Positions 3,701 through 37,721 of a stretch of 55,000 bases of DNA are shown here, piece after piece. Numbering within the stretch: the stretch's first letter is position 1; each line of letters opens with the position of its first letter. The notes under the pieces are model-generated. The model ran no database searches. It was not told where the DNA came from and saw only the letters and a list, made by a program, of their open reading frames with translations. The stretch lies in contig JAWQFJ010017379.1 in the NCBI GenBank assembly GCA_034096865.1, forward strand, positions 1 to 55,000, written 5' to 3'. Made by a program: the position numbers and the translations under genes. This DNA is from Theodoxus fluviatilis. Taxonomy: Eukaryota; Mollusca; Gastropoda; Cycloneritida; Neritidae.

Positions 3701-4336
3701 CAAGAGATACACACGCATTTTGTCTAGAGATACACACGCATTTTGTCTTTAGCTACACACGCATTTGTCTAGAGCCACACACGCACTTTGGCTAAAGCCA
3801 CACACGCACTTCGGCTAGAGCTACATACGCACTTTGGCAAGAGCTACACACCCACTTTGTTTAGAACTACACACGCATTTTGTCTAGAGCTACACACGCA
3901 TTTCGGCTAGAGCCACACACGCACTTTGTCGAGAGCTACACACGCACTTCGGCTAGAGCCACACACTCATTTTGTCTAGAGCTACACACGCACTTCGGCT
4001 AGAGCCACACACGCACTTTGTCTATAGCTACACACGCACTTTGGCTAGAGCTACACACGCACTTCGGCTAGAGCTACACACCCACTTTGTTTAGAACTAC
4101 ACACGCATTTTGTCTAGAGCTACACACGCACTTTGTCGAGAGCTACACACGCACTTTGTCGAGAGCTACATACGCACTCTGGCTAGAACTGTACACGCTC
4201 TTTGTCTAGAGCTATTCACGCACTTTGTAGAGAGATCACACGCACTTCGGCTAGAGCTGCACGCACTTTGGCTAGAGCTCCACACGCTCTTTGTCTAGAA
4301 CTATACACGCACTTTGTCTAGAGCTACACACGCACT
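799..4336. repeat. 23-bp satellite array, about 154 copies
   Basis: Tandem monomers with core TTTGTCTAGAGCTACACAC followed by GCAC. Most keep the palindrome TCTAGA (an XbaI site). Variants include GGCTAGAG, TCGAGAG and TTTAGAG, and CA/CG changes in the last four bases. Monomers are most uniform at about 960-1140 and 2640-2900. From about 3540 to 4336 they diverge (TTCGGCTAGAG, CTATTCACG), the usual pattern at an array edge. No open frame persists because 23 is not a multiple of three. Confidence 0.95.
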
Positions 4337-7232: not shown

Positions 7233-7447
7233 CCTTGGAGCTCGAAGAAGGAGATATCTCTGTTAGTGGAGCACACACACAGCATGTTGGGGATGAACAT
7301 GTGGGACATGGACAAATACAAGGAGGGCGCGACGCGTGGGCCGCCGTCGCAAATGCTCTGCGTTCGTTGGCACTTCATGTCCATCGTCCACAGTGACAGC
7401 GTCCCATCCACGCTCAAAAACGCGTAGCGTCCGGTCTCCTCGTCTAT
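7233..7447 (-). CDS. WDR49-like: WD40 exon of WDR49-like gene
   Basis: A 215-nt exon. The acceptor is a T/G-rich stretch ending GAATGCAG before ATAGACG, and the donor is CAAGG followed by GTAAGA. It enters in phase 0 and leaves in phase 2. The protein begins IDEETGRYAFLSVDGTLSLW, a WD40 blade with the usual D-G-x-L-x-x-W pattern, then TMDMKCQRT, the linker typical of this family, and a second blade ending CVCSTNRDISFFEL. The previous exon ends HYDQIIKVVHVPRW, so the joined HYDQI...YAFLS...LSLW forms a complete first blade. The remaining propeller is outside the window. A GA/TC microsatellite lies 60 bp downstream in the next intron. Confidence 0.85.
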
Positions 7448-9056: not shown

Positions 9057-9352
9057 TGTGGTTGCAGTGTTCGACCATCTCGGGACGTGGACCACCTTGA
9101 TGATTTGGTCGTAGTGACTGCTCTTGCACTCGATCATTCCGTGGGGGAAAGGCTTTATACGGGCTTGCTCAATCATGCGAGCCCTCTCCCTGTACTCTAG
9201 AAGGCTGAAGGTCACATATTCTTCCCACTGTATGATGTTGTCTGTATTGGTGTCTATCTTCATGAACAAAATTCGAGTCTCCTCGTCCGTCAAGAGCCTG
9301 CCAGTCTCCACGGTTCGGTTTGCTACTCGTTTGAACTGCTCCATGTTCAGGC
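9057..9352 (-). CDS. WDR49-like: EF-hand exon of WDR49-like gene
   Basis: A 296-nt exon with acceptor TTTTTCCGCCACAG before GCCTGAAC and donor ACCACA followed by GTAAGG. It enters after a phase-1 junction and leaves in phase 0. It starts LNMEQFKRVANRTV, the second half of a degenerate EF-hand whose first half (FEAAKLDGHTG) is in the preceding exon. Next comes a canonical EF-hand: helix TDEETRILFMKI, loop DTNTDNIIQWEE with acidic or amide residues at loop positions 1, 3, 5 and Glu at 12 (position 6 is Asn instead of the usual Gly), then YVTFSLLEYRERARM. The exon ends ECKSSHYDQIIKVVHVPRW, which leads into the first WD40 blade. Calcium binding by the second loop is likely from its residues. Confidence 0.88.
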
Positions 9353-10035: not shown

Positions 10036-10130
10036 ACTTTAGCGAATAAAACTTGTCAAATACATCTCTGCTTGGTAACGCACAATCAAAGTCATTCATC
10101 ATGTCAAGCTGATGTCGAAGTACGTGTGAA

Positions 10131-11275
10131 ACAAGAAGGGCAAAGCCCATACGACTCACATGCTTGTCCTTGATGTTTACATGACCTTGACCTTCAGGTG
10201 ACCTTCGAGGTCAAGGTCAACAACTAAACCTAGCAATGACATCATACACTAAAAATGCTTTACACATTTTCCCTACCAAAATGATGTGACCTTGACACAA
10301 GGTCAAGGTCATCCAAGGTCATGCAACACAAAGCTGTTAATTCAAGACATAGGAAGCACAATGGTGCTTATTGGCACTTTCTACCATGAGATATGGTCAC
10401 TTTTAGTGGTTCACTACCCCATTTTGGTCACATTTCATAAGGGTCAAAATGACCTTGACCTTGATGATATGTGACCAAATGTGTCTCGTGATAAAAGTAT
10501 AACATGTGTACTACAATGTTATGAAGTTTGGAAGAATTATCTTCCATAGTTCAGGGTCAAGGTCACTTCAAAACATGTATACAATCCAAATTTAAAGAGC
10601 TCCTGTGACCTTAACCTCGAAGCAAGGTCATTCAACCTGATATCCAAAGATAGGTATTACGTTGCCCTATATACCATATATAGGTCAGGTATCCAATCTC
10701 AAAAACGTCAGAGAAAAGTGGGAAAATGTGAAAAATGGCTGTTCTTAAACATTTACGGCCCCTGTGACATTGACCTTGAAGCAAGGTCAAGTCAACATGT
10801 ATGTTTTTTTACGCCTTGTTGTCATACACCATAATGCCAAATTGAGTGCTGATAGACTTAATAGTCTCCGAGAAAAATCCAACGTTAAAGTTTTTTACGG
10901 ATTATAGGACGACCGGACGACCGGACGCCCGGTCGCCCAGACGCAGGGACGGACGACACGGGTGACCTAGTATGAAAGTATAACATGTGTACTACAACGT
11001 TATGATGTTTAGAAAAGTTATCTTCCATAGTTTAGGGTCAAGGACACTTCAAAATATGTGTACAATCCAACTTTAAAGAGCTCCTGTGACCTTGACCTTG
11101 AAGCAAGGTCAAGTCACCATGTAAGCTTTGTACGCCTTGTACACCATCATGCCAAATTGGGTGTTGATAGACTTAATAGTCTCCGAGAAAAATCCAACGT
11201 TAAAGTTTGTTACGGACGCCCGGACGGACGAAATGGGTGAGTACATAGGCTGACTTTTGCTTCGCATGTGAGTAA
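10131..11275. mobile_element. AGGTCA-rich interspersed element, copy 1 (with partial second unit)
   Basis: Starts AAGAAGGGCAAAGCCCATAC then GACTCACATGC, and is full of TGACCTTGACC and its complement. A first end-like segment (GACGACCGGACG then GACACGGGTGAC) sits at about 10909-10973. A second partial unit, from TATAACATGTG onward, runs from about 10974 to 11275 and ends TTTGCTTCGCATGTGAGT. The two element ends carry the inverted 11-mer GACTCACATGC/GCATGTGAGTC (this copy ends GCATGTGAGTA). No coding region was found, so it is non-autonomous. The class is unknown. Confidence 0.8.
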
Positions 11276-13151
11276 AAAAACACATAAAATGTTCCATATG
11301 ATGGTCCAGTACTGGATATTTTTTCCTCTGGTCTGTCTCTCATTGCTTCATGGACAGTCGTTGTAGTAAAGATCTTGAGAACTACATTAAGCAATCCCTA
11401 CCAAAAGCACCTCGTAGTCTGAATGGCAAGACATGCACGGCTCTGTGGAGAAAAGCCACAATAAGAAAGCGCTCAGTGTGATATCGCAACGTGTACGGGC
11501 AATCAATGATTGGGAGAGAGTACTCTCGCCAACGAGTAAACTTATCTTGCTCTAAATGTTTTTTTACTTTCTTTGCGGAACAAGTAATCACTGTGTTCTT
11601 ATAATTTACACATGGTGCTCCTGTCAACAGTAAGGCAACAGAGGGAAAAATAATGTTCATATTTTGGAGTTCATGTTCGTGCGCAATTTTTCACGATATT
11701 AGGCATTAGGCACCCCTTTTTAAATTTTGGCAATTATTATGTTCTGTAAAAAGTTACATCAAATTAAACAGAGTAAACAAATTGAGGACACTAATTTCTA
11801 ATGAAACATACTGACTTTCTTTGGTAAATTCGAAACAAAATATTTTAACACAAATTTTATTTCTTACAGTAAACTTCATGCTCTCGGGGCATTAAGCCCC
11901 AGGGGGGTCGGGGCATTTTAGGCCCCAACATAAAATACGTATTTTGGTAAGTTTTATCTCATTTAAAACATATAATAACTTTCAAATGCATATAATCACA
12001 CGGGAGAGAAGAATTTCAAACGTTTAATTTTACTGCAGATTTGTCTGCCAGTGCACAGAGGCAAGGTCCAAAATGACATGATGCAGCCCCGATGCCCTAC
12101 TGTTAGCCCCTGACAGCTCAAAGCAACCCAAGCAGCTGCATGTGATACCATTCATCAAACAAAGTGTATGGTTTCCGTTTGTTTATTCTGATTTGTGTAC
12201 GTACTTAAGGCAGAAACGGCTGTTTTCTTGACTGGAAACAGGCACCAACTAGTCTTCTACTGACCTTTTCAGGATAAGTGTACGGAGCAGAAAAAAACAC
12301 ATGCTAATTTAGAGTAGAGGTGTGTGTGTATTGTATAATTATATTTTGTCTTGTTTGACTATAAACATACGCTAAAATGTGGGGCATTAAACCCCCGCGC
12401 ATTTTGATCGACATTCATGGGCTTTGCCTTTCTCATTCAAGATTAATAAAGCCATTAAAAGGTCAGGAAGTTTTAACTTGCTGTGGTGAAATATCATCAA
12501 ACTTATCATAATAAACAAACTTCAATGAAATTGTTTAATGGAGGAATCAAAAAGTCACCGAAAAAGCCACAGTTCCTCTTCAATTCTCTGCTAAAGTTTA
12601 TTTCCAAAGCAGTGCATGAGATCCGAAGTATAACACGAAATATCATGAAATTAATGCATATGCACTTGCCTTGGTAGTTTAGGAAAGCACTGATGCAATT
12701 ATCGTGTTCCTTTGTTGATCACGAAGTGCACATCGAAATTAGATGTGAGTGAGGTCTAAGAGGCAAAGTTTTTTTCGGACTTTCAACACAGCAGCAAAAG
12801 AGTGGTGTACAAATTGCACTGTGACTGACCTATTTCCGACTGGGTCAATACCATATGTCATTCTCGAGAGAAACTAACTTTGGTTGGTTGAAACTCATTC
12901 TGGAAACAAAATAACTAAACTGAAATGATGTGGGTCACTAATGCCCCCTGGGGCTTGATGCCCTGCTTTCCCATGTATATGTGACATGACATGACATACG
13001 TGTACGCTCGTCTAGAGTTAATGTGGAAGTCAATAGTTTTGAAGGTGGCCGACTGGCAAATAGCCAGGTCGGGAATGCCGCGTTAGATCTTGACAGAGGT
13101 TGCCTTGTTTTCGTTTCTAGTGGCACCGTCTGGTCCTGCTCTTTCTTTTAC
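11276..13151. other. Intronic sequence with GGGGC/GCCCC hairpin motifs
   Basis: No exon was recognised. Short self-complementary motifs of the form GGGGCATTAAGCCCC occur at 11886-11900, 11910-11926 (ATTTTAG loop), 12381-12396 (imperfect) and 12950-12963 (reverse form, one arm short). Related GCCCC/GCCCT runs occur at about 12085-12117. AT-rich sequence separates them. It could be an old, decayed DNA element. Confidence 0.45.
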
Positions 13152-13293
13152 CTGTATGTCCGTCTAGCTTGGCGGCCTCGAAGATAATGCGCATCTTGGC
13201 CATTCTCTCCTCTATAGTGAGGAATCTGTCCGAGCACGCAGTCAGAGCGAAGGCTTGCTCCACCGCTGTACCTCGTCGTATGTTCTGCATAGT
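13152..13293 (-). CDS. WDR49-like: Exon with first half of the EF-hand pair, WDR49-like gene
   Basis: A 142-nt exon with a strong acceptor (TTGCTTTTTCTCTCACATTCAG before ACTATGCAG) and donor GACATACAG followed by GTAAAAG. It enters in phase 0 and leaves in phase 1. The protein is TMQNIRRGTAVEQAF, then LTIEERMAKMRIIFEAAKLD and GHTG. The last part is the entering helix and loop of the first EF-hand, completed by LNMEQF in the next exon. Its loop lacks most calcium ligands, as expected for a structural partner hand. Both the phase and the mid-hand split agree with exon 9057-9352. Confidence 0.82.
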
Positions 13294-13517
13294 CTGAATG
13301 TGAGAGAAAAAGCAATTCACAACAAATGTTTAGTTGAGATGCAGCAAAAAATACATCGGAATATTTACAATTCCTGGTTTCAGCGACCCTTTGTTTCGTG
13401 TTTTAATACATGAAGGTCTGAGCACATATCAGGATCTCTATGTCTTTCTTGGGGGAAATAAATAAGTCAACCTGAAATTGTCTGACCTAGAAACAATTCA
13501 ACTAAGGACAAGTCCAA

Positions 13518-14394
13518 CAAGAAGGGCAAAGCCCATACGACTCACATGCTTGACCTTGACCTTTATATGACCTTGACCTTCAGGTGACCTTCAAGGTCAA
13601 GGTCAAACAACTAAACCTACCAATGACATCATACACTAAGAAATGCTTGACACTTTTTTCCTACCAAAATACATGTGACCTTGACCCAAGGTCAAGGTCA
13701 TCCAAGGTCATGCAACACAAAGTTGTTAATTCAAGACATAGGAAGCACAATGGTGCTTATTGGCACTTTCTACCATGAGATATGGTCACTTTTAGTGGTT
13801 CACTACCCCATTTTGGTCACATTTCATAAGGGTCAAAGTGACCTTGACCTTGATGATATGTGACCAAATGTGTCTCATGATAAATGTATAACATGTGTCC
13901 TACATAATTATTAAGTTTGAAACAGTTATCTTTCATAGTTCAGGGTCAAGGTCACTTCAAAACATGTATACAATCCAACTTTGAAGAGCTCCTGTGACCT
14001 TGACCTCGAAGCAAGGCCATTCAAACTGATATTCAAAGATAGGGCTTACTTTGCCCTATATACCATATATAGGTCAGGTATCCAATCTCAAAAAATTCAG
14101 AGAAAATTGAGAAAATGTGAAAAATGGCGGCTTTTTAGACAACATTTATGGCCCCTGCGACCTTGACTTTGAAACAAGAACAAGTCACTATGTATGTTTT
14201 TTGAGGCCTTGTCATCATACACCATCATGCCACATGTGGTATTGATAGACTTAATAGTCTCCGAGAAAAATGCAACGTTAAAGTTTTCGGACGCTCGGAC
14301 GACTGGACGCCCGGACGCCCGGACACCCGGACGCCCGGACGGACGAAACGGGTGAGTACATAGACTCACTTTTGCTTCGCATGTGAGTCAAAAA
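13518..14394. mobile_element. AGGTCA-rich interspersed element, copy 2 (full length)
   Basis: About 877 bp, the best full-length copy. It starts AAGAAGGGCAAAGCCCATAC and ends GCTTCGCATGTGAGTC followed by As. The exact 9-mer TCAAGGTCA or its complement TGACCTTGA occurs about ten times, several as overlapping direct repeats. The right end has CGGACGCCCGGACG repeats before GAAACGGGTGAGTACATAG. It has no open frame of note. Confidence 0.85.
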
Positions 14395-14634
14395 TGACCG
14401 CTAAAGTGACAGCACACGTCGCAAAGTAATAGGAGAGTCGGCTAGGGGTGAGACGGGAACTATTGTGGCAATTGCCGTACACCTTTGAGGAAAACGATGC
14501 ATAACTGTGCATAATCCATGGTATGGTCGATGTTATCACTCGAAACATTAATGCGACGAAGCACTGCACTCTACAAGGAATGCAATGCCACATTGTCAAA
14601 GTCAGGTCATTTCACACCACAGAGCAGACACTGA
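14395..14634. other. Non-repetitive intronic spacer
   Basis: About 240 bases between interspersed element copy 2 and the 25-bp array. Nothing was recognised. Confidence 0.5.
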
Positions 14635-16766
14635 TGCCATGTCGAAGGTCAGGCGGCAGTGCCTTGTCAAATGAGAGGCAGCAATATCATGTCAACTGAC
14701 AGACAGCATTAACGTGTCAAATGACAGACAGCATTAACGTGTCGAATGACAGACAACATTAACGTGTCAAATGACAGACAGCAATACCTTTTAAATTGAC
14801 AATCAGCAATACATTGTCAATTTAAAGAACGCAATACTGTGTTGGTAAACCAACAGCAATATCTTGTCAACTGAGAGACAGCAATACTCATCAATGGACA
14901 GACAGCAATACATTACCAGTTAATAAAAAGTAGTATTATGTCGGTTGAAAGACAGCAATACTTTGTCCATTGAAAAACAGCAATACCTTATAAACTTACG
15001 GATAGCAATACCATGTCGATCGTTAGACAGCAAACCTGCCAATTGACAGACAGCAATACCTTGTTAACTGACGGATAGCAGTGCACGGTCAATCGATAGA
15101 CAACGGTACCATGTCAATCGACAGACAGCAACATCTTATCAATAAACACACAACAAAACCGTGTCAATCGAGAGAGAGCAGTACCTTGTAAATTGGCAAA
15201 CAGCAATACTTTCTCAAATAATAGACAGCAATACATATTGTATTTACAGCAATACTTTGTCAATCAACAGACAGCAGTACCTTGTCAATCGACATACAAT
15301 ACCTTGTCAATCGACAGACAGCATTACCTTGTCAATCAACAGACAGCAGTACCGTGTCAATAAACAGACAGCAATAACTTGTCAATCAACAGACAGCAAT
15401 AACTTGTCAATCAACAGACATCAATACCTTGTCAATCGACATACAATACCTTGTCAATCAACAGACAGCAGTACCTTGTCAATCGACAGACAGACACAGT
15501 CAGCTAACAGATAGCAATACCTTGTCAATCAACAGACAGCAATACCGTGTCAATGAACAGACAGCAATAACTTGTCAATCAACAGACAGCAGTACCTTGT
15601 CAATCGACAGACAGACACAGTCGGCTAATAGATAGCAATACCTTGTCAATCAACAGACAGCGTTACCGTGTCAATGAACAGACAGCAATAACTTGTCAAT
15701 CAACAGAGATCAATACCTTGTCAATCGACAGACAGACACAGTCGGCTAATAGATAGCAATACCTTGTCAATCAACAGACAGCAATACCGTGTCAATCAAC
15801 AGACAGCAATACCTTTTCAATCAACAGACAGAAATACCTTGTCAATCAACAATCAGCTATAATTTGTCAATCTATAGACAGCAATAGGTTGTTAATCGAC
15901 AGACAGCAATACATTGTCAATCGATATACAACAATACCTTGTCAGCAGTAATACATTGTCGATAATCAGACAACATTTCCATGTCAAGCAAAGGACAGCA
16001 ATACCTTGTCAATCAACAGACAGCAATACCTTGTCAATCAACAGACAGCAATACCTTGTCAATCAACAGACAGCAATACCTTGTCAATCAACAGACAGCA
16101 ATACCTTGTCAATCAACAGACAGCAATACCTTGTCGATAAAGAGACAGCAACACCTTGTCGATAAAGAGACAGCAACACCTTGTCGAGAATCAGACAGTA
16201 TTATCTTGTCAACAATCAGTGCCCTTGTAAATTGACGGACAATAATACCTTGTCAATTGACAGACAACAATACATTGTCAATAATTAGACAGTATTACAC
16301 AGACGATAATCAGACAACATTACCTTGTCAGTCAACATACAACAATACCTTGTCAATCAACAGACAACAATACCTTGTCATTCAACAGACATACTTTGTC
16401 AATCAAAAGACAGCAATACCTTGTCAATCAACAGACAAAACTATCTTGTCAATCTACATACAGTATTACCTTGTCATTCAACAGACAGCAATGCCTTGTC
16501 AATCGATAGAAAACAATACCTTGTCAATCAACAGACAGCATTGCCTTGTCAATCAACATACAGCAGTGCCTTGTCAATCAACAAAACAGCAATACCTTGT
16601 CAATCAACATACAGTATTATCATGTCAATCAACAGACAGCAATACCTTGTCAATCAACAGACGGCAATAACTTGTCAATCGACAGACAGCAATACCTTAT
16701 CAATCGATAGACAGCAATTACTTCTCGTTAATCAGACAGTATTATCTTGTCGATAATCCGACAGTC
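14635..16766. repeat. 25-bp minisatellite, left block (about 85 copies)
   Basis: The unit contains AATCAACAGACAGCAATACC followed by TTGTC. The leftmost monomers (14635-15150) are divergent (ACTGACAGACAGCATTAACG, AATCGATAGAC types) and later ones are uniform, with runs of identical units at 16010-16130. In the sense orientation of the host gene the unit reads GACAAGGTATTGCTGTCTG, which resembles the donor of exon 20887-20995. A 25-bp period lets frames persist with a 25-residue protein repeat, but these are not genes. Confidence 0.95.
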
Positions 16767-17369
16767 TTCTTCTTCTGTTTGTCCTTCGTAGTCGAAGATG
16801 ACCATGGCTTCAAAAGCCAGATGGAAGACCGGTGGCTGTGGATCCTGAGGTGACTGACGAGACCAATCCGGATCCTGAAAGCTCGCCCACATATGGGACA
16901 CAAGTGAGTGGGTGCCGTCGTGGCAGTGGATGCTGCGCGGGCCTTGCACACGGCACGCATTCGCTGCGCCTGGGTGATGCGCATAGCTTCAGCCGCACGG
17001 GCTCCTGTGGTGATCTTGCTCCGCCAGGCTGGACGGTCCTCAGCAAGCGTCTCCCAAGCGTTGATGTGGATGCCTAGGTCTTTGATGGACGCTTTGAGGC
17101 AGTCTTTGTAGCGCTTGCCCTGACAGTTCTCCGTACATCAGCTGCTTAGGCAGTCGACTGTCTGGCATTCTTACTACATGTCCAGCCTATCTGGCCTGTG
17201 CTTTCTGCAGGAAGGTGTAGACACTGCAAAGGCCAGATCGCTCAGGACTTCTGTGTTGGGAACTTTGTCCTGCCATCCGATATGGAGGAGTCTGTGGAGA
17301 CAGCTCAGATGGAAGTGGTTGAGCTGTTTGACATGCCTGCTGTAGACAGCCCAAGTCTCGCTGGCTTAA

Positions 17370-18730
17370 AGGAGGGTGGTAAGGATTACTGCACAGTAGA
17401 CCTTAAGCTTGGTGGTAAGGCTGAGACCTCTCCGCTCCCACATCCTCCCACAGAGTCTTCCGAAGGCGGCGCTGGCTTTGGCGATCCTGTTGTAGACCTC
17501 AGTGTCTATGTTGACTGTACCTGAGAGTGAGCTGCGGAGGTAAGGAAAGTTGTCGACTGCCTGGAGGTTCTGTCCCTTTACCGTAATGCGCGGCTCCTGG
17601 TATGGCTTTCCTGGGGCAGGCTGATACATCGCTTCTGTCTTTTTGGTGCTGATGGTAAGACCGAAGTTGTCACCGGCTTGAGAAGAAGTAGTTCATTTCG
17701 CGCTACATCTTCTGTTCTGTGCTGGTGGTGAGTGCGCCGTCATTGGCAAACAAGAAGTCTCTCATGACAATCTCATTCACCTTCGTAATAGCTTGCAGGC
17801 ACCTGAGGTTGAACAACCTGCCGTCAGTCCTGTATTTGATGTGGATTCCTTCTTTGCAGTCACGGAAAGCATGTCAGCATGGCTGAGAATATCATGCTGA
17901 ACAGAGTCGGGGCGAAAACACTTGACTCCGTTTGTCAGAGGTAAGGCCTCCTACTTACCTCTGTCATCCAAAACTTTCACCACCACGCCATCGTGGAACT
18001 GCCGGACAATTGTGATGAACCTGCTGGGGAAGCCGATCTTCTCCATGATCTTCCACAAGCCTTCCTTGCAGACCGTATCAAAGGCCTTGGTCAGATCGAC
18101 AAAGGTCATAGAGAGGTCGCTGTGTTGCTCCTGGCATTTTTACTGGAGTTAGCGCGCAGCGAAAATCATGTCTGCGGTCACGCTCAGCACGGAAGCCGCA
18201 CTGGCTCTCTGGGAGGAGACCTTGCTCAAGGTGTTAGAGAAGGCAATTGAGCACGACACAGGCCAGAATCTTCTCAGCAATGGACAAGAGGGAGATGCCT
18301 CGGGGTTGTCGGAAGACTGACGGTTGCCTTTCCTCTTGTAGATGTTGACTATGCTGGCATCATTCAGCTGTTGCGGGACCTGTCCCTTGTTCCACATGGA
18401 CTGGAAGAGTTCAGTCAGCTTTTGCATCATGGCAGGGCCTCCTATTTTGTATACATCAGCAGGGATTGCATCCGATCCGAGAGCTTTGCAATTGGAGAGT
18501 TGTTTCACTGCTTTTCTGACTTCGTCTTTTGTGGCTAGGGTGTCAAGGTCTTCATTGATCTCTACCTGAAGCAGGCGAGCAATGGCCTTGTCATCGATGT
18601 CGGTTGAGTGATTGGGGACATTGTTGAAGTGCTCAGTCCACCGCTCCAGAATCTGCTTCTTCTCTGTCAGCAGTCGCGTCCCATCTGCGTTTAGTAGGGG
18701 TGAGGAGTCGGAGGACTGGGGTCCGTACAC
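17370..18730 (-). pseudogene. Reverse transcriptase of the inserted LINE, broken
   Basis: Pieces in different frames read in order KRFYDALKTVYG, LERWTEHFNNV, SNCKALGSDAIPADVYK, LTELFQSMW, IVNIYKRKGNRQSSDN, then after a shift FVDLTKAFDTV (18071-18103, catalytic Asp region) and FLFANDGAL (17733-17756). The last should be FADD, but the first catalytic Asp is Asn. Together with the frameshifts and the upstream stop, this makes the polymerase inactive. Plus-strand open frames over this stretch are antisense shadows. Confidence 0.85.
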
Positions 18731-18808
18731 AGTCTTGAGCGCATCGTAAAAACGCTTTGTATTGTGGTTGTCTGTGTAGCCCTGGATTTCATCGACCTTC
18801 TTGCTGAG

Positions 18809-19063
18809 CTAGCTGTCTTGCATCTCGCGAAGTTTCTTCTGCACCTTTCCTCTAGCAGTGGAAAAGGCATTCTTCTTGGCTTGTGACATGGGGTTGTTTT
18901 GATGGGCTCTGAACAGTTGATGCTTCTCAGTTAGCATTGCCTGTATTTCATCATTTTCATCAAACCAGTCTTGGTTTCTTCGGGATGCCGGTCCGAGATA
19001 TTCGAGGGCGGTGGTGTAGACAGCCTCTCTGAGGGCCGTCCATTGTTCCGCAACAGTGGTCAC
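18809..19063 (-). pseudogene. LINE linker between endonuclease and reverse transcriptase
   Basis: An open stretch with AEQWTALREAVYTTALEYLG, then RNQDWFDENDEIQ and KKLREMQDS before a stop where related elements usually read on (next residues LSKKVDEIQGYTDNHNTKRF in the same frame). The stop is probably a mutated codon. This segment is the usual connector in the element family and has no catalytic role. Confidence 0.75.
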
Positions 19064-19168
19064 GTCTTCCTGTGGTGTGTTGGGCAGTCTGCCTTCAAGG
19101 TCATCGGCAAATTCTTCTGCAACCTTGCTGCTTGTCAGCTTGGAAACATTTCGCTTCTTTGAAGTCTT

Positions 19169-19999
19169 CTAACCTTGTGGTCTTCTCGTGAGCAGAATGC
19201 GAAGCCTGAACTTGGACACGTTGAGGCGGTGGTCAGTCCAGCATTCAGTGCCAAACATGGCTCTTGTCACTCTGATGTCTGGCCTGTCCCTCTTCCTAGT
19301 GATGACGTAATCTATGAGATGCCAGTGCCTCGAACGTAGGTGCATCCATGACGTCTTCTTGCGGGTGGGTAGGCGGAACAGGGTGTTGGTGATGACAAGG
19401 TCATGCATGGCACATGTTCTGAGGATCAGAAGGCCGTTGGTGTTATACTCTTCAGTGTCGTGCCTTCCAATGATTCTTTCCCAAGTTTGGTAGTCTGTCC
19501 CTAATCTTGCATTAAAGTCCCCGAGAACAATAAACTTCTCAGACTGGGGGACTGCTGAGATGATGGTGTCGAGTTCTTCATAGAACCTTGCTTTAATGTC
19601 ATCTAGGTTGGTCATGGTCGGAGCGTAGGCACTATTCAGCGTTGCACTCTTCTTATTTGAAAGTGGATGCTGAAGTGTTATCAGGTGGTCGTTGATGACC
19701 TCTGGAAGCTTGGTGAGTTTACAGGCTAGGTGAGGCTTAATGGCAATTCCCACAACTGCTTCTCGTCGTTCACCGCAGCTGTGACCGCTCCAGAAGAACG
19801 TGTATCCACCGCTATGTTCTGTCAGCTGGCCCTTGTCTGCTGGGCGTGTTTTGCTGAGAGCCGCTACATCCACGTTGTAGCGAGCTAGCTCTTTAGCAAC
19901 CAGCGCAGTTCTTCTCTCTGGTCTGTCTGCCTTGATGTTATTCAGCAGAGTTCTCACGTTCCATGATCCAAGGTTGAACAAAATCCTTTTTTTCTTCAT
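19169..19999 (-). pseudogene. APE-type endonuclease of the inserted LINE, catalytic Glu lost
   Basis: A 276-residue open frame beginning MKKKRILFNLGSWNVRTLL. The order matches apurinic-like endonucleases of non-LTR elements: NVRTLL, then DVAALSKTR where LSETR is expected (the metal-binding Glu is Lys, codon AAA), NSAYAPT, FIVLGDFNARLG, IDYVITRKRDRP and CWTDHRLN. The GDFN and DH residues are intact, so the Glu-to-Lys change is the main defect. The enzyme would nick the target DNA for target-primed reverse transcription. The start Met is the first in frame and follows about 230 nt of leader. Confidence 0.88.
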
Positions 20000-20228
20000 T
20001 TTAAATCGACCGCTTTGAGGGATCCCTACCAGCCGCGGTAAGCTGGCCAGGGTGAAATGAAGCAGGCTATGGTTGGGGCACCTTTAGAAACTTAGAAACT
20101 AAGCCACACGTGAAGGCTAGGAGTTAGGTTTGGTTGTCAGAGGTTATAGGAGACGCATGCCATGAGGAGCATTTCATAGGTAGTAGGAGCTTATCTCCAC
20201 TACCACCCCTCGGCTTGACAACCTTAGG

Positions 20229-20884
20229 AATCAGACAGTATTGCCTTGTCAATCAACAGACAGCAATGCATTGTCAATCAACAGACAGTATTATCTTGTC
20301 AATCAACAGACAGTATTACCTTGTCGATAATCAGACCTTGTCAATCGACAGACAGCAATGCATTGTCAATCAACAGACAGTATTATCTTGCCAATCAACA
20401 GACAGTATTACCTTGTCGATAATCAGACAGTATTACCTTGTCAATCAACAGACAGCAATACATTGTCAATCAACAGACAGTATTGCCTTATCAATGAACA
20501 GACAATATTACCTTGTCAATAAACAGACAGTATTGCCTTGTCGATAAAGAGACAACATTACATTGTCAATCAACAGAGAGTATTACCTTGTCGACTAAGA
20601 GAGAGTATTATCATGTCGATAATCAGCCAGTATTACTTTGTCAATCAACAGACAGTATTACCTTATCAATCAACAGACAATATTACCTTGTCAATGAACA
20701 GACAGTATTGCCTTGTCGATAAAGAGACAACATTACATTGTCAATCAACAGACAGTATTACCTTGTCGACTAAGAGAGAGTATTATCATGTCGATAATCA
20801 GCCAGTATTACTTTGTCAATCAAAAGACAGTATTACCTTCTTGATAAAGAGACAGTGTTACCTTGTCAAAACTGAGACAGTATT
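20229..20884. repeat. 25-bp minisatellite, right block (about 26 copies), abutting an exon donor
   Basis: Monomers here mostly read CAGACAGTATTACCTTGTC plus AATCAA, or GATAAAGAGA variants. In sense orientation this gives GACAAGGTAATACTGTCT, identical over 18 bases to the real donor of exon 20887-20995 (GACAAG|GTAATACTGTCT). The last monomer overlaps the exon end. The block is the continuation of 14635-16766, separated by the LINE. Confidence 0.93.
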
Positions 20885-20886
20885 AC

Positions 20887-20995
20887 CTTGTCCATCGCCG
20901 ACCTTTGCATTTGCTCCTTCATCCATTTCCAGAAGAAATTTGTATGTTTTCGTCCGTATTTGTCCCGTTGTTGTTCGATATTGAAAAACGACATC
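20887..20995 (-). CDS. WDR49-like: 109-nt exon of WDR49-like gene whose donor lies in a minisatellite
   Basis: Acceptor TTTTCTCGTGCAAACAG before GATGTCG, donor ATGGACAAG followed by GTAATA. One base completes a codon from the previous exon (CG+G, Arg), then 36 codons: MSFFNIEQQRDKYGRKHTNF, FWKWMKEQMQRSAMDK. It leaves in phase 0, matching exon 13152-13293. The Lys/Arg/Trp-rich helix has no named domain that I recognise. The donor sits in the final monomer of a 25-bp array, each copy of which repeats the same donor sequence. Confidence 0.72.
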
Positions 20996-21655
20996 CTGTT
21001 TGCACGAGAAAATGAAATGGAGGAAATGTAATGCTTACAACAGAAAATACTGGTTCTAATGCTCATTTATCGAACATGAGCATTGGCGGTTGTAATAAAT
21101 TTGGCAGGCATCCCATGCGCGAATATCAACACATGACAACGTATTCGGCCCTCAAAGAAGTGAAAATTAAAATAGATGTAAAAAATGTTGTGTTTTACAG
21201 TTACTACTATATTCTATTTTAATCTTGTCGGGTAAGAGTTTTTTCATACAACAAGAGTCACATATAATGTTAGAAATGTTTCCTTATACAACAGAAATAG
21301 CCACATAACAATGAAAGATATATCAGAGCAGATCAAAACAGTTTTTTGTGTGAATTATTTTGTGCGCATTACAAGGGGACGGGTACAGATGCATTCAAAT
21401 ACAATATTTCATTCAAGCATTCCTTTAGACCTTAAACAAAACAGTTTCAAGGACCAGCCTTATTTCTTTTTAGTGTTTTGAATTTGAATCAGGCGAATGC
21501 GTGACAATTCCATTCCTTCTTCGTGTATATTGCATTGTTTGAAAAATTTCTCCTGTATGTTTCCCCATCGCACTTTGAAAAACATAATCTGGAACACTCA
21601 TACCATTGGCATTCGCAATAAGGAAGGAATCTGTCTTCGTTTTCACTTAATCCGA
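20996..21655. other. AT-rich intronic sequence
   Basis: No exon, repeat or motif was identified in these 660 bases. Short open frames on both strands lack family signatures. Confidence 0.5.
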
Positions 21656-21836
21656 AGAAGAAGGGCAAAACCCATACGACTCACATGCTTGACCTTGACC
21701 TTTACATGACCTTGACCTTCAGGTGACCTTCAAGGTCAAACAACTAAACCTAGCAATGACATCATACACTAAGAACTGCTTTACACATTTTCCTACCAAA
21801 AAACGGGTGAGTACTTTTGCTTCGCATGTGAGTCAA
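21656..21836. mobile_element. AGGTCA-rich interspersed element, copy 3 (internally deleted)
   Basis: Keeps the left end (AAGGGCAAAACCCATAC, GACTCACATGC) up to CATTTTCCTACCAAA, then jumps to the right end AACGGGTGAGTAC...TTCGCATGTGAGTC. About 700 bp of the full element is missing. Both ends survive, as in internally deleted DNA transposons, which supports defined element termini. Confidence 0.8.
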
Positions 21837-21984
21837 TAAAACTGGCAAGACAGTCAAGTCTTGCAAGCAAATGCAAACGACAAACTATTTCAACTGGCAG
21901 TCATTAGGGGAGACACAACTTGACAATAGATAATACTCTTGCTGTATTTAACGACGTTGGTCAGAAAGGGTCATTTATAGGTTG

Positions 21985-22970
21985 CTTTCATAGAATTCAA
22001 AAATGAAATCGAAAGCATAAATAGGTCTGTGCTGTGGAATTGCTGTGTAAGATTAAAGTGAGACAAAATGCTGCCTTACTTTGGAGGCAATATACAAAAT
22101 GCTGCGTTACGTTGGAGGCAATGTACAAAATGCTGCGTTACGTTGGAGGCAATGTACAAAATGCTGCGTTACGTTGGAGGCAATGTACAAAATGCTGCGT
22201 TACGTTGGAGGCAATGTACAAAATGCTGCGTTACGTTGGAGGCAATGTACAAAATGCTGCGTTACGTTGGAGGCAATGTACAAAATGCTGCGTTACGTTG
22301 GAGGCAATGTACAAGTCAGTCAAGGCCTTTGTGAGAGCAGACGGGAAGTCAGCATTCGCCAACAAGGCCCGAAGCAAAGCAGAAGTTCCAGCGCGATATA
22401 ATTTTATTTCTTTTATTAATGAACTGGGTATAGAGATCATTCGGAATGATAGATAGGCATGGAGTACAAAAGATATTCAATGAAGAAGAGACTTTGGTAT
22501 TGCTGTTTGCAGATGACCTTGTGCTCCTTTCAAGCACACAAAGAGAATGAAAATATGGTTTAAAACTTTAGTGAATCTGATGACTTGAATTTTATTGTAG
22601 ATTTAGAAAAAGAAGGTGTTATTAGTGCAGAAAGGCACTAAAAATGATGGGAAAATTGGACACGTGATGGTACATCATTCAAATCACGAGTTTTTTTAAT
22701 AAGTAATTTGGATATGTATTCAAATTATGGGTTAGTCTAAAAGCTGCTCTAAAAGATATGACTCCAAACGCAAACTATAATTATGCATAACTCATGGTAT
22801 GCATAGGTTGTGCAAAGATAGATTTTCACAAATGTGTATGCACAGATTCAAATCCTTTTTATTCAAGCGAAGAATGGGGACTTAAACATGTGAAGTGACT
22901 GAGAGAATTCAGTCAATTGCTCTCAAACGCTGTCCCCAAGTAAGATTGGATTTAGTACGCTTTAGTTTCA
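21985..22970 (+). mobile_element. Decayed LINE reverse transcriptase with internal minisatellite (remnant 3)
   Basis: In order on plus: SINRSVLWNCC (about 22013), the 31-bp array (22081-22313), LEAMYKSVKAFVRADGK, FISFINELGIEIIRN (about 22405-22450), ETLVLLFADDLVLLSST (about 22488-22540, with the catalytic FADD), FIVDLEKEGVISAERH, then FGYVFKLWVSLKAALKDMT and GCAKIDFHK (to about 22835) and VTERIQSIALKRC (about 22898). These are consecutive blocks of a mollusc LINE ORF2, seemingly the family of remnant 1. Several stops and frameshifts are present. Confidence 0.75.
22081..22313. repeat. 31-bp minisatellite inside LINE RT (about 8 copies)
   Basis: The units begin at 22081, 22112, 22143, 22174, 22205, 22236, 22267 and 22298, with core GTTGGAGGCAATGTACAAAA. 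Apart from the first, copies are identical. The last unit runs straight into the LINE coding text (LEAMYK-SVKAFV), so the unit derives from the LEAMYK part of the RT gene. Because 31 is one more than a multiple of three, all three frames stay open. Confidence 0.93.
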
Positions 22971-23211
22971 TTAATTGAGTAAATGACTTAGAGACGACGT
23001 GATTGATTGGTTTAATGTATTGTGTCCATTTGCTTCTCTTGTCATACACATTACTTGACTGGTTAGAATGAAGATAGGCGTGAGAGAGTTCAAGCCGCCC
23101 ATCATGATGGCTAGAGGTGTCTTTTGTGCCTCTTGACCCCAACCACCCACACACGCGTGCACTCAAGCCATCCAGACACAACATGTGTGTTGGTCGACTA
23201 CTAGACTAGGA
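22971..23211. other. Spacer between LINE remnant 3 and interspersed element copy 4
   Basis: No gene was recognised in about 240 bases. A short minus-strand frame overlaps the LINE end. Confidence 0.45.
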
Positions 23212-24045
23212 ACAAGAAGGGCAGCCCATACGACTCACATGCTTGACCTTGACCTTTATATGACCTTGACCTTTAGGTGACCTTCAAGGTCAAGGTCAAA
23301 CAAATAAACCTACCAATGACATCATACACTAAGAAATGCTTTACACATTTTTCTACCAAAATACATGTGACCTTGACCCAAGGTCAAGGTCATCAAGGTC
23401 ATTCAACACAAAGCTGTTAATTCAAGACATTGGAAGCACAATGGGGCTTATTGGCACTTTCTACCATGAGATATGGTCACTTTTAGTGGTTCACTACCCA
23501 ATTTTGGTCACATTTCATAAGGGTCAAAGTGACCTTGACCTTGATGATATGTGACCAAATGTGTCTCATGATAAATGTATAGCATGTGCCCTACATAATT
23601 ATTAAGTTTGAAACAGTTATCTTTCATAGTTCAGGGACAAGGTCACTTCAAAACATGTATACAATCCAACTTTGAAGAGCTCCTGTGACCTTGACCTTGA
23701 AGCAAGGTCAACCAAACTGGTATCCAAAGATAGGGCTTACTTTGCCCTATATACCATATATAGGTCAGATATCCAATCTCAAAAACTTCAGAGAAAATTG
23801 AGAAAATGTGAAAAATGACTGTTTTTTAGACAACATTTACGGCCCCTGCGACCTTGACCTTGAAGCAAGAACAAGTCACTATGTATGCTTTTTGAGGCCT
23901 TATCATCATACACCATCATGCCACATTTGGTATTGATAGACTAATAGTCTCCGAAAAAAATCCAACGTTAAAGTTTTCGGACGCCCGGACGGACGAAACG
24001 GGTGAGTACATAGACTGACGTTTGCTTCGCATGTGAGTCAAAAAC
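23212..24045. mobile_element. AGGTCA-rich interspersed element, copy 4
   Basis: Starts AACAAGAAGGGCAGCCCATAC and ends TTTGCTTCGCATGTGAGTC. It is collinear with copy 2 over about 834 bp with scattered substitutions, and again dense in TGACCTTGACC. It lacks part of the CGGACG repeats near the right end. Confidence 0.85.
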
Positions 24046-25197
24046 TTCGGAAAATCCAACACCCCCAGGCATTTGTGATGAATTAGTGGCACCCAGGTGA
24101 TTCTTATGGATTTCAGTATGCTGAATCCATTTCTGGTGGATGCCAAAGCCAAAAGTGCCTATTTTCGTAACTATTCAACGGCTTCCAAGATGGCCGCCAG
24201 GACATCAAAAAGACTGTAAATTCTCAAACAAATGCTTATATCTTCCTTATTTTCAGAGTTATTCTAATACATTTTGGCATGTTGGTAGACAACTGATAGA
24301 CAAGTGTTCTCTTGTCATGGTTAATGACCTTGACCTTTTTGTGAATGTCACACGAGACGGACAAAGTTGAGTAGCATCATTTTTTTAATTTGTGTATTTC
24401 AAGTTGGCTTTGGCTCTGATATAGGCCAAACTAAATGCTGAAACTTGTTGACACTATCAAATAAGTGCTTGACATTATTAATATGTATACATTGAGCAAC
24501 CTTCTGAAAAGGTCAAGGTCATTTTGACCTCATAGTTCCAATGTAAGCATAAGAGGATCCGCTCAAGATTTGTAGTGGCCCATATGTTGCTAACACTGGA
24601 TATCTGAAGCTCTTAATAACTTTCAGCAGAGTTTCAGATCTTCGTTGTACATTTTCCAAGATCAAAGATGAAGGTCAAAGATCAAGGTCTCGATCTTTAT
24701 TTTGATGATTTATACCACACAAAAATGTTATAATCTGTAGATTACATCATTCAGAATTCAGTAAAAGGAAATGCAGTCATGCAGCTTTACCCTTTAAGAC
24801 CTGTGGGGTACCAGTATTTTGCACAGTTCAAGGTCACAATGACGTCTTGTGTTGCCTTACGGTACATGTAAAATTGCTTTTCTCTCGCTTTTAAGAGCTA
24901 ATTTGTACTTCTAAATGTTAACCTATTGGCACTAAAATACCTTTGTATGGCAGTATAAAATATTGTTTGTAAATTTTAAGACATTGGTATTCATATCTTG
25001 TATAGATCAATGTCAAGGTCACTCGAAACATTACGTTTCGTTTAAATTACCACTTTTCAGAACCCCCAAAGTGACCTTGATCTTCAGCATTTCCAACCTA
25101 AGTCATACGTTTGTAGAATAGGATGATATAGTGAACATGTCTAGGTACTTTCATATTTCTGTGAATAGGTCAAGGTCGGGGTGACTACAAATATCAC
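24046..25197. repeat. Second AGGTCA-containing repeat-like stretch
   Basis: Continues from copy 4 without its termini. Isolated AGGTCAAGGTCA/TGACCTTGACC blocks occur near 24325, 24510, 25010 and 25070, and a CCAAGATGGCCGCC block (YY1-like) at 24185-24198. No coding signal was found. It may be a diverged relative of the interspersed element or a different repeat that shares the motif. Confidence 0.4.
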
Positions 25198-25200
25198 CTC

Positions 25201-25322
25201 CCACACACTCACACACTCTCTCTCTCTCACACACTCACACACTCTCTCTCACACACTTACACTCTCTCACACACTCACACACTCTCTCTCTCACACACTC
25301 ACACACTCTCTCTCACACACAA
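25201..25322. repeat. CACACTCACACACTCTCTC repeat
   Basis: Imperfect tandem of CACACTCACACACTC followed by CT runs, with a unit of about 30 bp that varies in length. Confidence 0.9.
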
Positions 25323-25470
25323 GCAAGTGAAGACGGGGAGGCGACCTCCTTCATTCTAACGCCATCCTACATCGTCTACTTAGAACTCGTCGCAGGAACT
25401 CTATCATTGCCTGCCGACCATCTCAACACTTCTTCGTCCTCTCCATCGTCGTGTAAAGAACGAACTCACT

Positions 25471-25665
25471 CCTATCCCCATCAGAGACTGTTTCATCTTG
25501 TCTCCCAGGAGGTGGGAAAATTCACCGCCATTGGTCCTATCCCCATCAGAGACTGTTTCATCTTGTCTCCCAGGAGGTGGGAAAATTCACCGCCATTGGT
25601 CCTATCCCCATCAGAGACTGTTTCATCTTGTCTCCCAGGAGGTGGGAAAATTCACCGCCATTGGA
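25471..25665. repeat. Three exact 65-bp tandem repeats
   Basis: Units begin CCTATCCCCATCAGAGACTG at 25471, 25536 and 25601, and no differences were seen among the three copies. The period is not a multiple of three, so the frames shift from copy to copy. Sequence identity implies recent duplication. The unit has no match to the other repeats in the window. Confidence 0.95.
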
Positions 25666-26129
25666 TTACGCACTGAGAGGACGCTCGTCCCATGTGTCTG
25701 TGCATTTTGTGATTTTTCCCAACGGAATTCTTGGATTCAGGACTACATATCGAGCTGGTATGGGTTTTTAATTCATTTATTCTTACCCGTTTTTTAATAC
25801 TTGACTCATGATTTAACTTGGTTTGCGTTTTTGTTTGGAATTGTAATATAGTGGGTTGGTGAGTGAAAGCTACGTTGTTTTTCCCACCGTTGTGAGTCAC
25901 TTTTCGTTCACATAGAAATTGTCAATGTTAATTAATTAAAAATTACTCCTAATTCTTTGCCCACTCCTTGGTGTTCCAGTTTTGTGTGAACCATCGCATG
26001 GAGACATGGAGAGAATTATGAAATGCAACGCATGGCGTGTGTAATCCCCTAGACATAGAAAATTGGTCTGTGGAAATCACGAGCCGAAGGTGCGGATATT
26101 TATTTCAGCCCCTCAGTATGCGCCCCCGT
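25666..26129. other. Intronic spacer without recognised features
   Basis: No exon or repeat was recognised between the 65-bp repeats and the CAGA arrays. Confidence 0.5.
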
Positions 26130-26924
26130 GACACACAGACAGACACACAGACAGACACACAGACAGACACGCAGACAGACACACAGACAGACACACAGAC
26201 AGACACACAGACAGACACACAAACAGACACACAGACAGACACACAGACAGACACACAGACAGACATGCACACAGACAGACATAATGACGGAAACAGAGAC
26301 ATATAGAGACGGAGACAGAGATACAGAGATAGAGACAGAAAGACAGAGACAGAGAGACACAATGACAGCAACAAAGATAGACAGACAGAGGTACACAGAC
26401 AGAGACAGACAGGCAGATGTACAGAGATAGAGACAGACATACGGATATACAGAGATAGACAACAAACATACAGAGAGATAGAGACAGACATACAGATATA
26501 CAGATATAAAGACATGCATACACATATACATAGATTGAGATAGACAGAGACAGACAGATATATATACAGAGATAGAGACCTATAGATATACAGACATAGA
26601 GACAGACATATAGACATACAGAGATAGAGACAAACATACAGATATACAGAGATAGAGACAGACAAACAGATACAGAGACAGACAGATAAACAGAGATAGA
26701 CAAACATATAGATATACAGAGATAGCGACAGACAAACAGATATACAGAGTTAGAGACAGACAGATATACAGAGATAGAGACAGACAGACAGATATACAGA
26801 TATAGAGACAGACAGAGATATAGAATGACATACAGATATATACTGAGATAGAAACAGACATATATACAGAGATAGAGACAGATAGACATATACAGAGATA
26901 GAGACAGACTGACAGAGAGAGGGG
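26130..26924. repeat. CACACAGACAGA array grading into GACAGA/GATA minisatellite
   Basis: At 26130-26273 a 12-bp unit (CACACAGACAGA) repeats with few errors. At 26283-26924 a looser repeat of about 28 bp (ACAGAGATAGAGACAGACAT then ACAGATAT) continues to within 15 bp of the donor of exon 26939-27255. In the sense orientation of the gene the intron thus opens with a TCTG/TATC-rich tract. Confidence 0.92.
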
Positions 26925-26938
26925 CTTGCGAACCTTAC

Positions 26939-27255
26939 CGCTCACTCGAGTCCGTGCGCAGAATCTTGGGAGTTGGATCATTAAAAATTCTTTCAGAAGG
27001 CGAGGTTTCAATCTCTTTCCCGTATACTACTGATAAATGACGTTTGAGTTCGTCCTGAGTCCTTGATTGCCTGGTGAAATTTCTTTTCTCAAAGGTGGGC
27101 AGGACAACAGAGCTGGTTGTGGATGTGCTAGCAAGGGTGAGCTGTTCATCGCACAAGCGGGAGGCAGGCAAGGACTGTTGCATCAAGTGGCGCGCTGAGG
27201 ATACCCTGGATGCGGCAGCAGACGGCGACCGAGAGGCGTCAGCCGATGAATTCAC
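26939..27255 (-). CDS. WDR49-like: Ser/Thr-rich exon of WDR49-like gene
   Basis: A 317-nt exon with acceptor TATTTTCGCCCTACAG before GTGAATTC and donor TCGAGTGAGCG followed by GTAAGG. It enters in phase 0 and leaves in phase 2, joining exon 20887-20995 (CG+G). The protein is low-complexity at first (VNSSADASRSPSAAASRVSS), then DEQLTLASTSTTSSVVLPTF, then a more ordered EKRNFTRQSRTQDELKRHLS and IFNDPTPKILRTDSSER. No named domain was recognised. It is probably a disordered N-terminal linker ahead of the EF-hands. A longer open frame extends upstream into the 15-bp array, but that is intron. Confidence 0.65.
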
Positions 27256-27284
27256 CTGTAGGGCGAAAATACGTGCATCACCTC

Positions 27285-27460
27285 TGCCACCACCACTGCT
27301 ACCACCTACCGTCCCTCCTCCATTAGCTCCACCATCAGCAAAACCACCACTGCTGCTCCCGCTACTATTACCACTGGGACAGCCATTTCTTATACTATAC
27401 AACAACAACGAAACAACGAAAAGAACAGCTACTGCTGCTCTGCTGCTGCTACTACTATTT

Positions 27461-27513
<53 letters not shown>

Positions 27514-28715
27514 GCTGATGCTGCTGCTGCTGCTGCTCCCGCTACTACCGTTACAGACACCACTGCCATCGCCACCACCACCACCACCACCACCACCACA
27601 CCCACCGTTAAAACCATCGTTACCATCACCACCACAACTATTACCACCACCACCATTACCACCACCGTTGCCACCACAATCGTTACCAGCACCACCACCG
27701 TTTACACTACCATCGTCACCACCGACTTCGTTACCATTAACACCATTACAATTTACTGCCGTTCCCACCACCACCGTTCCCACAACTACCATTGTTACCA
27801 TTAACAACGTTCCCACCACCACCGTTCCCACAACTACCATTGTTACCATTAACAACGTTCCCACCACCACCGTTGCAATCGCCATTGCTACCGCGACCAT
27901 CATTACCGCATCTGCCACCATCGTTACCAACACCATCGTTACCGCCCACATCGTTACCAACACCATCGCTACCGCCAACATTGTTACCAACACCATCGCT
28001 ACCGCCAACATTGTTACCAACACCATCGTTACCAACACCATCGCTACCGCCAACATTGTTACCAACACCATCGCTACCGCCAACATTGTTACCAACACCA
28101 TCGTTACCAACACCATCGCTACCGCCAACATTGTTACCAACACCATCGCTACCGCCAACATCGTTACCGCCATCACCACCATCGTTACCAACACAATCGT
28201 TACTGCCGCCACCGTTACTGCCATTACGGTGATTACCACCATCACTACCGCCACCATCGCTACCGCCACCATCGCTACCGCCACCATCGCTACCGCCACC
28301 ATCGTTACCACCACCATCGCTACCGCCACCATCGCTACCGCCACCATCGCTACCGCCACCATCGCTACCGCCACCATCGCTACCGCCACCATCGCTACCG
28401 CCACCATCGCTACCGCCACCATCGTTACCACCACCATCGCTACAGCCACCATCGTTACTGCCAGCACCACCATCGTTACTGCCGCCACCGCTACCGCCAC
28501 CATCGTTACCATCACCATCGCTACAGCCACCATCGTTACTGCCAGCACCACCATCGTTAATGCCGCCACCGTTACTGCCACCACGACCATCGTTACCGCC
28601 AGTACTACCATTGTTACCACCACCACCGTTACTGCCATCAACACCATCATTACCGCCACCATCGCTAACGCCGCCATCGTTACCGCCAGCACCACCATCA
28701 TTACCACCTCCATCA
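27285..28715. repeat. 15-bp satellite, segment A, with trinucleotide tracts at its edge
   Basis: Begins as irregular CCACCACTGCTACC text, with CTA/CTG trinucleotides at 27430-27540 and CAC at 27571-27600. It becomes regular from about 27880 (ACCATCGCTACCGCC, and CGTTACCAACACCATCGCTA dimers at 27960-28150). The right edge is the 3' tail of a LINE insertion. Confidence 0.93.
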
Positions 28716-29195
28716 GAACAGAACAGAACAGAACGGTTTACTTGTGAAAGGCCATTTGGCCTATTACAAAGGAGGGGATTCATACATATACAAGACAAAC
28801 TAATATAAATTAATTCATGGACACAGTGGGTGAGCATTAGTGTCAAGGTCAGACTTGTTTCTTCTCCGTTTCAGGGCTTTGTAAATAAACCAAGCAAGCG
28901 AATGACTTTTGGTGCCTGTGTACATCATGACTTGTTGAAATTTCATTCTGTACATTTCTTGGGGGCAGTTAAGAAAATATGGCCTGAAATAATCATATTC
29001 ATGACATGCAAACAAAAGATGCTCCTCGTTCTCCATTTGTCCACAGAACTGGCAAGATAATATATTGTTATAAGCGTTTGCGGTGTATCTCTTTGCATGG
29101 CAGTTTATTTCACTAACGCTCATTCTAAATCTGGTATAGGATGCTCTAGCAGGCATAGGCAGACTTTGTAGATAAGATTCCATATCATGGTTTAC
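28716..29195 (-). mobile_element. 5'-truncated LINE tail inserted into the 15-bp satellite (remnant 4)
   Basis: On minus, from about 29190: YLQSLPMPARASYTRFRMSV, CHAKRYTANAYNNI, a zinc-knuckle-like CQFCGQMENEEHLLFAC, YDYFRPYFLNC, then LAWFIYKALKRRRNKSDLD and a stop near 28815. This is the same C-terminal block order as remnant 1. The 3' UTR ends in a TTCTG microsatellite (about four units). Both flanks are satellite, with ACCTCCATC at each side as a possible 9-bp target-site duplication. Confidence 0.8.
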
Positions 29196-36859: not shown

Positions 36860-37721
36860 GATGGTGGCAGTAACGATGGCGGCAGTAACGATGGTGGCAG
36901 TAACGATGGTGGCAGTAACGATGGTGGCAGTAACGATGGCGGCAGTAACGATGGTGGCAGTAACGATGGCGGCAGTAACGATGGTGGCAGTAACGATGGT
37001 GGCAGTAACGATGGTGGCAGTAACGATGGTGGCAGTAACGATGGTGGCAGTAACGATGGTGGCAGTAACGATGGTGGCAGTAACGATGGTGGCAGTAACG
37101 ATGGTGGCAGTAACGATGGTGGCAGTAACGATGGTGGCAGTAACGATGGTGGCAGTAACGATGGTGGCAGTAACGATGGCGGCAGTAACGATGGTGGCAG
37201 TAACGATGGTAGCGGTAACGATGGTGGCGGTAACGATGGCGGCGGAAACACGATGGCGGCGGTGGCTGTAACGGTGACGGCAGTAACGGTGGCAGCGGTA
37301 GCGATGGTGGTGGTGGCAGTAACGGTGGCGGTGGTAGCGATGGAGGTGGTGGCAGTAACGGTGGCGGCGGTAGCGATGGTAGTGGTGGCAGTAACGATGG
37401 TGGCGGTAGCAATGATGGCAGTAACGATGGCGGCGGTAGCGAGGGTAGCGGTAGCAATAGTGGCGGTAGCGAGGGTAGCGGTAGCGATAGTGGCGGTAGC
37501 GAGGGTAGCGGTAGCGATATTGGCGGTAGCGATGGTGGCGGTAGCGATAGTGGCGGTAGCGATGGTGGCGGTAGCGATGATGGCAGTAACGGTGGCGGTG
37601 GTAGCGAAGGTGGCGCTAGTGATGGTGGCAGTAACGATGGTGGCGGTAGCAATGATGGCAGTAACGATGGCGGCGGAAACGATGGAGGCGGTAACGATGG
37701 TGGCGGTAGCGATAGTGGCTA
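36860..37721. repeat. 15-bp satellite, segment D, inverted orientation
   Basis: The same family reads on the opposite strand (GATGGTGGCAGTAAC). The left switch is the 16-bp palindrome CCACCATCGATGGTGG (36852-36867) and the right switch is centred on TATCGATA (37720-37727). Its right half mirrors 37728-38130 in rare-variant order, so it is an inverted duplication. Confidence 0.95.

What the first reader, a model, noticed from the sequence alone, without database searches (positions are those of the whole stretch)
14635..20995. A 25-bp minisatellite made of about 110 copies of an exon's own 5' splice site
Exon 20887-20995 (minus) ends GACAAG with the intron starting GTAATACTGTCT. The adjoining array, read in the same sense, repeats GACAAGGTAATACTGTCT in every monomer of its right block, an 18-base identity spanning the exon-intron junction. 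Farther monomers (14635-16766) read GACAAGGTATTGCTGTCT, still a good donor. Either the minisatellite arose by tandem duplication across the splice junction, or the gene adopted one monomer of an older array as its donor. In both cases the transcript carries a long row of decoy donors that could bind U1 snRNP, protect against early polyadenylation, or allow variable exon length.
Basis: partly seen in the sequence, partly recalled or inferred. Interest (0 to 1): 0.86.

Follow-up and report, generated by a model that had tools for sequence, protein, structure and literature searches.

The report
Minisatellite that starts inside an exon
A long row of 25-base repeats begins inside the end of a predicted coding exon of an animal gene, so that the exon's likely splice signal is itself the first repeat; only about one repeat in eight matches that signal in predicted strength, and a similar arrangement is already described in the human clotting factor VII gene.

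Summary
The array is real and its first monomer straddles a predicted exon-intron junction. Alignment gives 27 monomers at 20232-20896 and 88 at 14625-16768, split by a retrotransposon with an 11-bp, one-mismatch target duplication. The exon is well supported: A (20887-20995), B, C and D splice in one frame, an EF-hand pair spans B/C, and A's donor is the only in-phase ATG-frame donor of score 1.7 or more in 13.7 kb.

Three claims fail. The exon's 18-mer is in 5 of 27 right-block monomers, not every one. The usual distal monomer is a poor donor (0.21 against 2.78). Of the other 114 monomers, 13 reach the exon's donor score, and donor columns are not better conserved. A stop begins 18 nt past the junction, so later monomer donors cannot give productive longer exons. 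The intron has no AATAAA and two ATTAAA, so shielding from early polyadenylation has little to act on.

Best reading: a mostly neutral intronic minisatellite that includes its exon's donor, the first site predicted to be used, as reported for human F7 intron 7. Donor-first or array-first is undecided. New member of a known kind.

The parts
20887..20995 (-). Predicted exon A (109 nt): G then ATG and 36 codons, ending MDK; its last 10 bases lie in the array's first monomer
   Evidence: Splices in frame with B, C, D; only in-phase ATG-frame donor of score 1.7 or more in 13294-27000
20874..20896 (-). First monomer R0, spanning the exon-intron junction at 20887|20886
20232..20896 (-). Right block of the 25-bp array, 27 monomers, with a 175-bp higher-order period
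16766..20228 (-). Degenerate non-LTR retrotransposon inserted in the array; target duplication ACTGTC(T/G)GATT at 20229-20239 and 16755-16765
   Evidence: Endonuclease PF03372 3.6e-10 in 19169-20083; target duplication
14625..16768 (-). Left block of the array, 88 monomers (the first of them mostly the target duplication copy), usual core AAGGTATTGCTG
13152..13293 (-). Predicted exon B, first part of the EF-hand pair
9057..9352 (-). Predicted exon C, rest of the EF-hand pair
7233..7447 (-). Predicted exon D, no Pfam match
20866..20868 (-). First in-frame stop (TGA) if the exon A donor is not used

Best explanation
A decayed 25-bp minisatellite begins ten bases inside the end of a predicted coding exon, so that the exon's likely 5' splice site is the array's first monomer, and the spliceosome would use that first site and pass over the later ones. 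Shown by sequence: the continuity of array and junction, the open frame A-B-C-D, the loss of donor quality in most monomers, the retrotransposon lodged in an array that already existed, and the stop codon just past the junction. Inferred: that exon A is used, that the first donor wins by position (as reported for human F7 intron 7), and that the array is mostly neutral, grown and homogenised by slippage or unequal exchange. A transcript that used a later monomer donor would carry a premature stop and would probably be degraded. Which came first is not decided; I lean slightly to the donor as seed, because the gene then never lacks a working donor.
For: Junction monomer 21 of 25 matches, 0 of 71 other AAG|GT sites reach 19. 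Four exons make a 253-residue frame with GT-AG introns. EF-hand pair PF13499 rises from 21.0 bits on the exon C frame to 27.2 bits, E 5.2e-6, on the spliced protein, residues 69-132, across the B/C join. Exon A's donor is the only in-phase ATG-frame candidate of score 1.7 or more in 13294-27000, 0 on the other strand. Donor columns rank 13 and 16 of 25 for conservation; target duplication at the retrotransposon's ends. Read-through gives MDK-VILSQF-stop. F7 precedent: passages of PMC6627357.
Against: No transcript and no related species were available. No homologue was found (one search gave EF-hand proteins only), so exon A rests on frame, sites and uniqueness, and Pfam's EF-hand scores stay below the curated cut-off (27.2 against 30). 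Over the whole window the ORF-donor scan gives 12 candidates on minus and 1 on plus at A's strength, 21 and 6 at 1.7, so such candidates are not rare elsewhere; at threshold 0 the local scan gives 3 and 1. Eleven of 27 right-block monomers (R0 included) tie exactly, so position alone must explain the choice.
Confidence: 0.68

Rival explanations
1. The later donors have a function: bound by U1 snRNP they shield the intron from early polyadenylation, strengthen the exon or serve as spare donors.
For: Sites of the exon's strength are about 13 times denser in the right block than on the minus strand of the window (15.0 against 1.18 per kb).
Against: Donor columns not better kept; left block at background density; 0 AATAAA and 2 ATTAAA in the intron; spare donors give a stop.
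Confidence: 0.08
2. 20887-20995 is not an exon, and the likeness of a frame end to a donor is an accident of the array.
For: No homologue; 36 codons are short; frame 0 of the same stretch is open too.
Against: In-phase join to B, acceptor, ATG and uniqueness in 13.7 kb.
Confidence: 0.15
3. On origin, array first: an older array lay beside the gene and its terminal monomer was adopted as the donor, replacing an earlier one.
For: Tandem repeats cover 48 per cent of the window; the array is older than the retrotransposon in it; G at -12 of the exon copy is in none of the other 114 monomers and G at -7 in 1.
Against: Needs loss of an earlier donor; the same base differences can arise if the seed unit began at -10. 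Not decided by these data.
Confidence: 0.45

Closest known systems
Human coagulation factor VII gene (F7), intron 7, 37-bp repeats (passages of PMC6627357; the paper it cites for oriented scanning, Borensztajn et al. 2006, PLoS Genet 2:e138, is not held and was not read)
   Same: The exon's real 5' splice site lies in the first of a row of homologous repeats, and the most upstream site is used in normal condition.
   Different: 25 bp against 37 bp; [quoted passage not shown] most monomers here have lost donor quality; a retrotransposon splits the array; use of the first site is only predicted here.
Ordinary intronic minisatellites (for example the human VNTR survey PMC8096271, seen in the search listing only)
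   Same: Tandem array, here inside an intron, with a higher-order period and decayed ends.
   Different: This one overlaps predicted coding bases and supplies the likely donor.

Membership tests
Minisatellite overlapping an exon's donor (F7 intron 7 type) | The first repeat contains the exon's 5' splice site | tested here: met
   R0 20874-20896 spans 20887|20886, 21 of 25 matches; the exon itself is predicted, not proven
Minisatellite overlapping an exon's donor (F7 intron 7 type) | Later repeats carry highly homologous 5' splice sites | tested here: inconclusive
   10 of 26 further right-block monomers and 3 of 88 left-block monomers reach the exon's donor score; monomers with a gap in the site were not scored
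Minisatellite overlapping an exon's donor (F7 intron 7 type) | Only the most upstream site is used | not testable with these tools
   Needs RNA reads
Minisatellite overlapping an exon's donor (F7 intron 7 type) | Repeat number varies between individuals | not testable with these tools
   One sequence only
EF-hand protein (host gene) | EF-hand pair | tested here: inconclusive
   PF13499 E 5.2e-6 across the B/C join, but 27.2 bits against a curated cut-off of 30; PDB best match radial spoke protein 7, 4.3e-9, through its EF-hands
WDR49/CFAP337-like ciliary protein (recalled resemblance) | WD40 propellers | tested here: inconclusive
   No WD40 match in the 253 residues, no PDB relative of the C-D part; only one exon past the EF-hands is in hand. 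That CFAP337 has two WD40 propellers: passages of PMC10504270

The most novel reading that the evidence does not exclude
An exon's splice site evolves in concert with a satellite: gene conversion or unequal exchange rewrites the donor from neighbouring monomers. In its strongest form each monomer, which sets an acceptor-like AAG directly before a donor GTA with branch-point-like TTGAT/TTGAC upstream, works as a ratchet point, so that the row is spliced out recursively.
Probability: 0.05. Interest if true: 0.75.

Novelty: new member of a known kind. Interest (0 to 1): 0.36.

Why it matters
If exon A is confirmed, this is another natural case, outside mammals by its look, of an exon whose donor belongs to a minisatellite. 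It offers a natural test of how the first of many equal donors is chosen, and of whether satellites are seeded by, or supply, splice sites.

Tried and rejected
Homologues: two protein-database searches (260 and 658 candidates, none scored under the E-value limit), two PDB searches (EF-hand proteins; two designed proteins at E 0.19) and one viral-contig scan (none) gave no relative of exon A, so neither the exon end in relatives nor the gene's name could be settled. Monomer elsewhere: 0 in viral contigs; 7 single matches in genome contigs, about what chance gives (7.5 expected by my own arithmetic for that pattern over 257 Gb, both strands), not read. Within the window, all 67 matches with up to 3 mismatches lie in the two blocks. 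Rfam: nothing in 13000-21500. No tRNA in the window. Selection on donor columns: tested, not seen. Origin from monomer order: looked at, does not decide. Literature searches; only led to the F7 precedent. PMC2423196 (passages) lists scanning as one model of splice-site choice among others.

Full report
What is there. Tandem repeats cover 48 per cent of the window. It looks like animal DNA; that it may be a mollusc is recalled from the look of its retrotransposon and rests on no call. On the minus strand four predicted exons splice in one frame with GT-AG introns: A 20887-20995, B 13152-13293, C 9057-9352, D 7233-7447. The 253-residue product has an EF-hand pair across the B/C join: PF13499, 27.2 bits, E 5.2e-6, against 21.0 bits for the open frame that holds exon C; both are under the curated cut-off of 30. 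No WD40 match appears in exon D. The likeness to WDR49/CFAP337 is recalled and was not borne out by a call.

Is exon A real? It has an acceptor (TTTTCTCGTGCAAACAG), an ATG one base later, 36 open codons and a donor in phase 0, as exon B needs. The frame is also open upstream to another ATG, 60 codons from the donor, so A could be a first exon instead. Scanning 13294-27000 for ATG-started frames of at least 35 codons that end in phase 0 at a donor of score 1.7 or more gives 1 site on the minus strand, this one, and 0 on the plus strand; at threshold 0 there are 3 and 1. Over the whole window at A's strength there are 12 and 1, at 1.7 there are 21 and 6, so the scan is not very selective in other parts. 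No homologue was found. I put exon A at about 85 per cent.

The array. Alignment to a 25-bp consensus gives 27 monomers at 20232-20896 and 88 at 14625-16768. Between them lies a degenerate non-LTR retrotransposon on the same strand, with an endonuclease frame (PF03372, 3.6e-10; the other three pieces scanned gave no reverse transcriptase match). Its ends carry ACTGTCTGATT and ACTGTCGGATT, an 11-bp target duplication with one mismatch, in register with the monomers. The array was therefore there before the insertion. The right block has a 175-bp period of 7 monomers. Identity to the block's consensus is 0.93 in the best parts, 0.72-0.75 at the far left end and 0.80 at the exon end.

The junction. 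The first monomer covers the last 10 bases of exon A and the first 13 of the intron. Over 25 bases it matches the consensus at 21; of 71 other AAG|GT sites on the minus strand outside the array, none reaches 19 and the best has 14.

What does not stand. The exact 18-mer GACAAGGTAATACTGTCT is in 5 of 27 right-block monomers, the exon's own included, and in 0 of 88 left-block monomers. The distal 18-mer is in 7 of 88. Eleven of 27 right-block monomers (R0 included) and 3 of 88 left-block monomers reach 2.78, two of the latter exceeding it; monomers with a gap in the site were not scored; the usual distal monomer scores 0.21. GT is at the donor place in 76 of 115 monomers and AAG|GTAA in 14. Donor columns are not better kept than others: mean majority fraction 0.883 against 0.876 (right) and 0.838 against 0.843 (left), ranks 13 and 16 of 25 windows.

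How it would work. Reading past the exon A donor gives VILSQF and a stop that begins 18 nt past the junction. The next monomer's donor place lies 25 nt past it, so a transcript that used any later monomer donor would contain this stop; the row cannot give a productive protein of variable length. The intron holds 0 AATAAA and 2 ATTAAA on the gene's strand. I commit to position: the first donor is used and the others are passed over. [quoted passage not shown] The primary paper is not held. For this gene it is an inference; other models of donor choice exist (passage of PMC2423196).

Which came first is open. The own-genome search did not complete, and other collections gave nothing. G at -12 of the exon copy is in none of the other 114 monomers and G at -7 in 1, which fits either story. 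I lean slightly to the donor as seed.

Verdict. A real and tidy case of a known kind. The proposed functions of the decoy row are unsupported, and productive variable exon length is excluded by the reading frame.

Noticed in passing
31799-40668: A 15-bp array of about 590 copies (GCCACCATCGCTACC) holds a stretch near 37279-37446 whose units are listed in the opposite orientation, and GC skew flips in the 37001-38000 step.
   Followed up: no
798-4336: A 23-bp minisatellite of about 154 copies lies beyond exon D, so perhaps in the next intron of the same gene.
   Followed up: no
10130-10965, 13516-14355, 23211-23991, 21651-21801: An interspersed element of about 0.8 kb in three copies (about 90-95 per cent identical) and a fragment. 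Short TGACCTTGACCTT tandem repeats lie within two of the copies and the fragment; they recall a nuclear-receptor half site (name recalled).
   Followed up: partly
25470-25664: A 65-bp unit in three copies with 100 per cent matches, a very young tandem triplication.
   Followed up: no
22063-22314: A 31-bp array of about 8 copies, 98 per cent matches, upstream of exon A.
   Followed up: no
53027-53695: A frame with a weak endonuclease-reverse transcriptase match (PF14529, E 0.002, below the curated cut-off), perhaps another non-LTR element.
   Followed up: partly
26935-28737: An open frame of 600 codons on the minus strand, much of it through 15-bp arrays; its end, 26935-27600, has no Pfam match.
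   Followed up: partly
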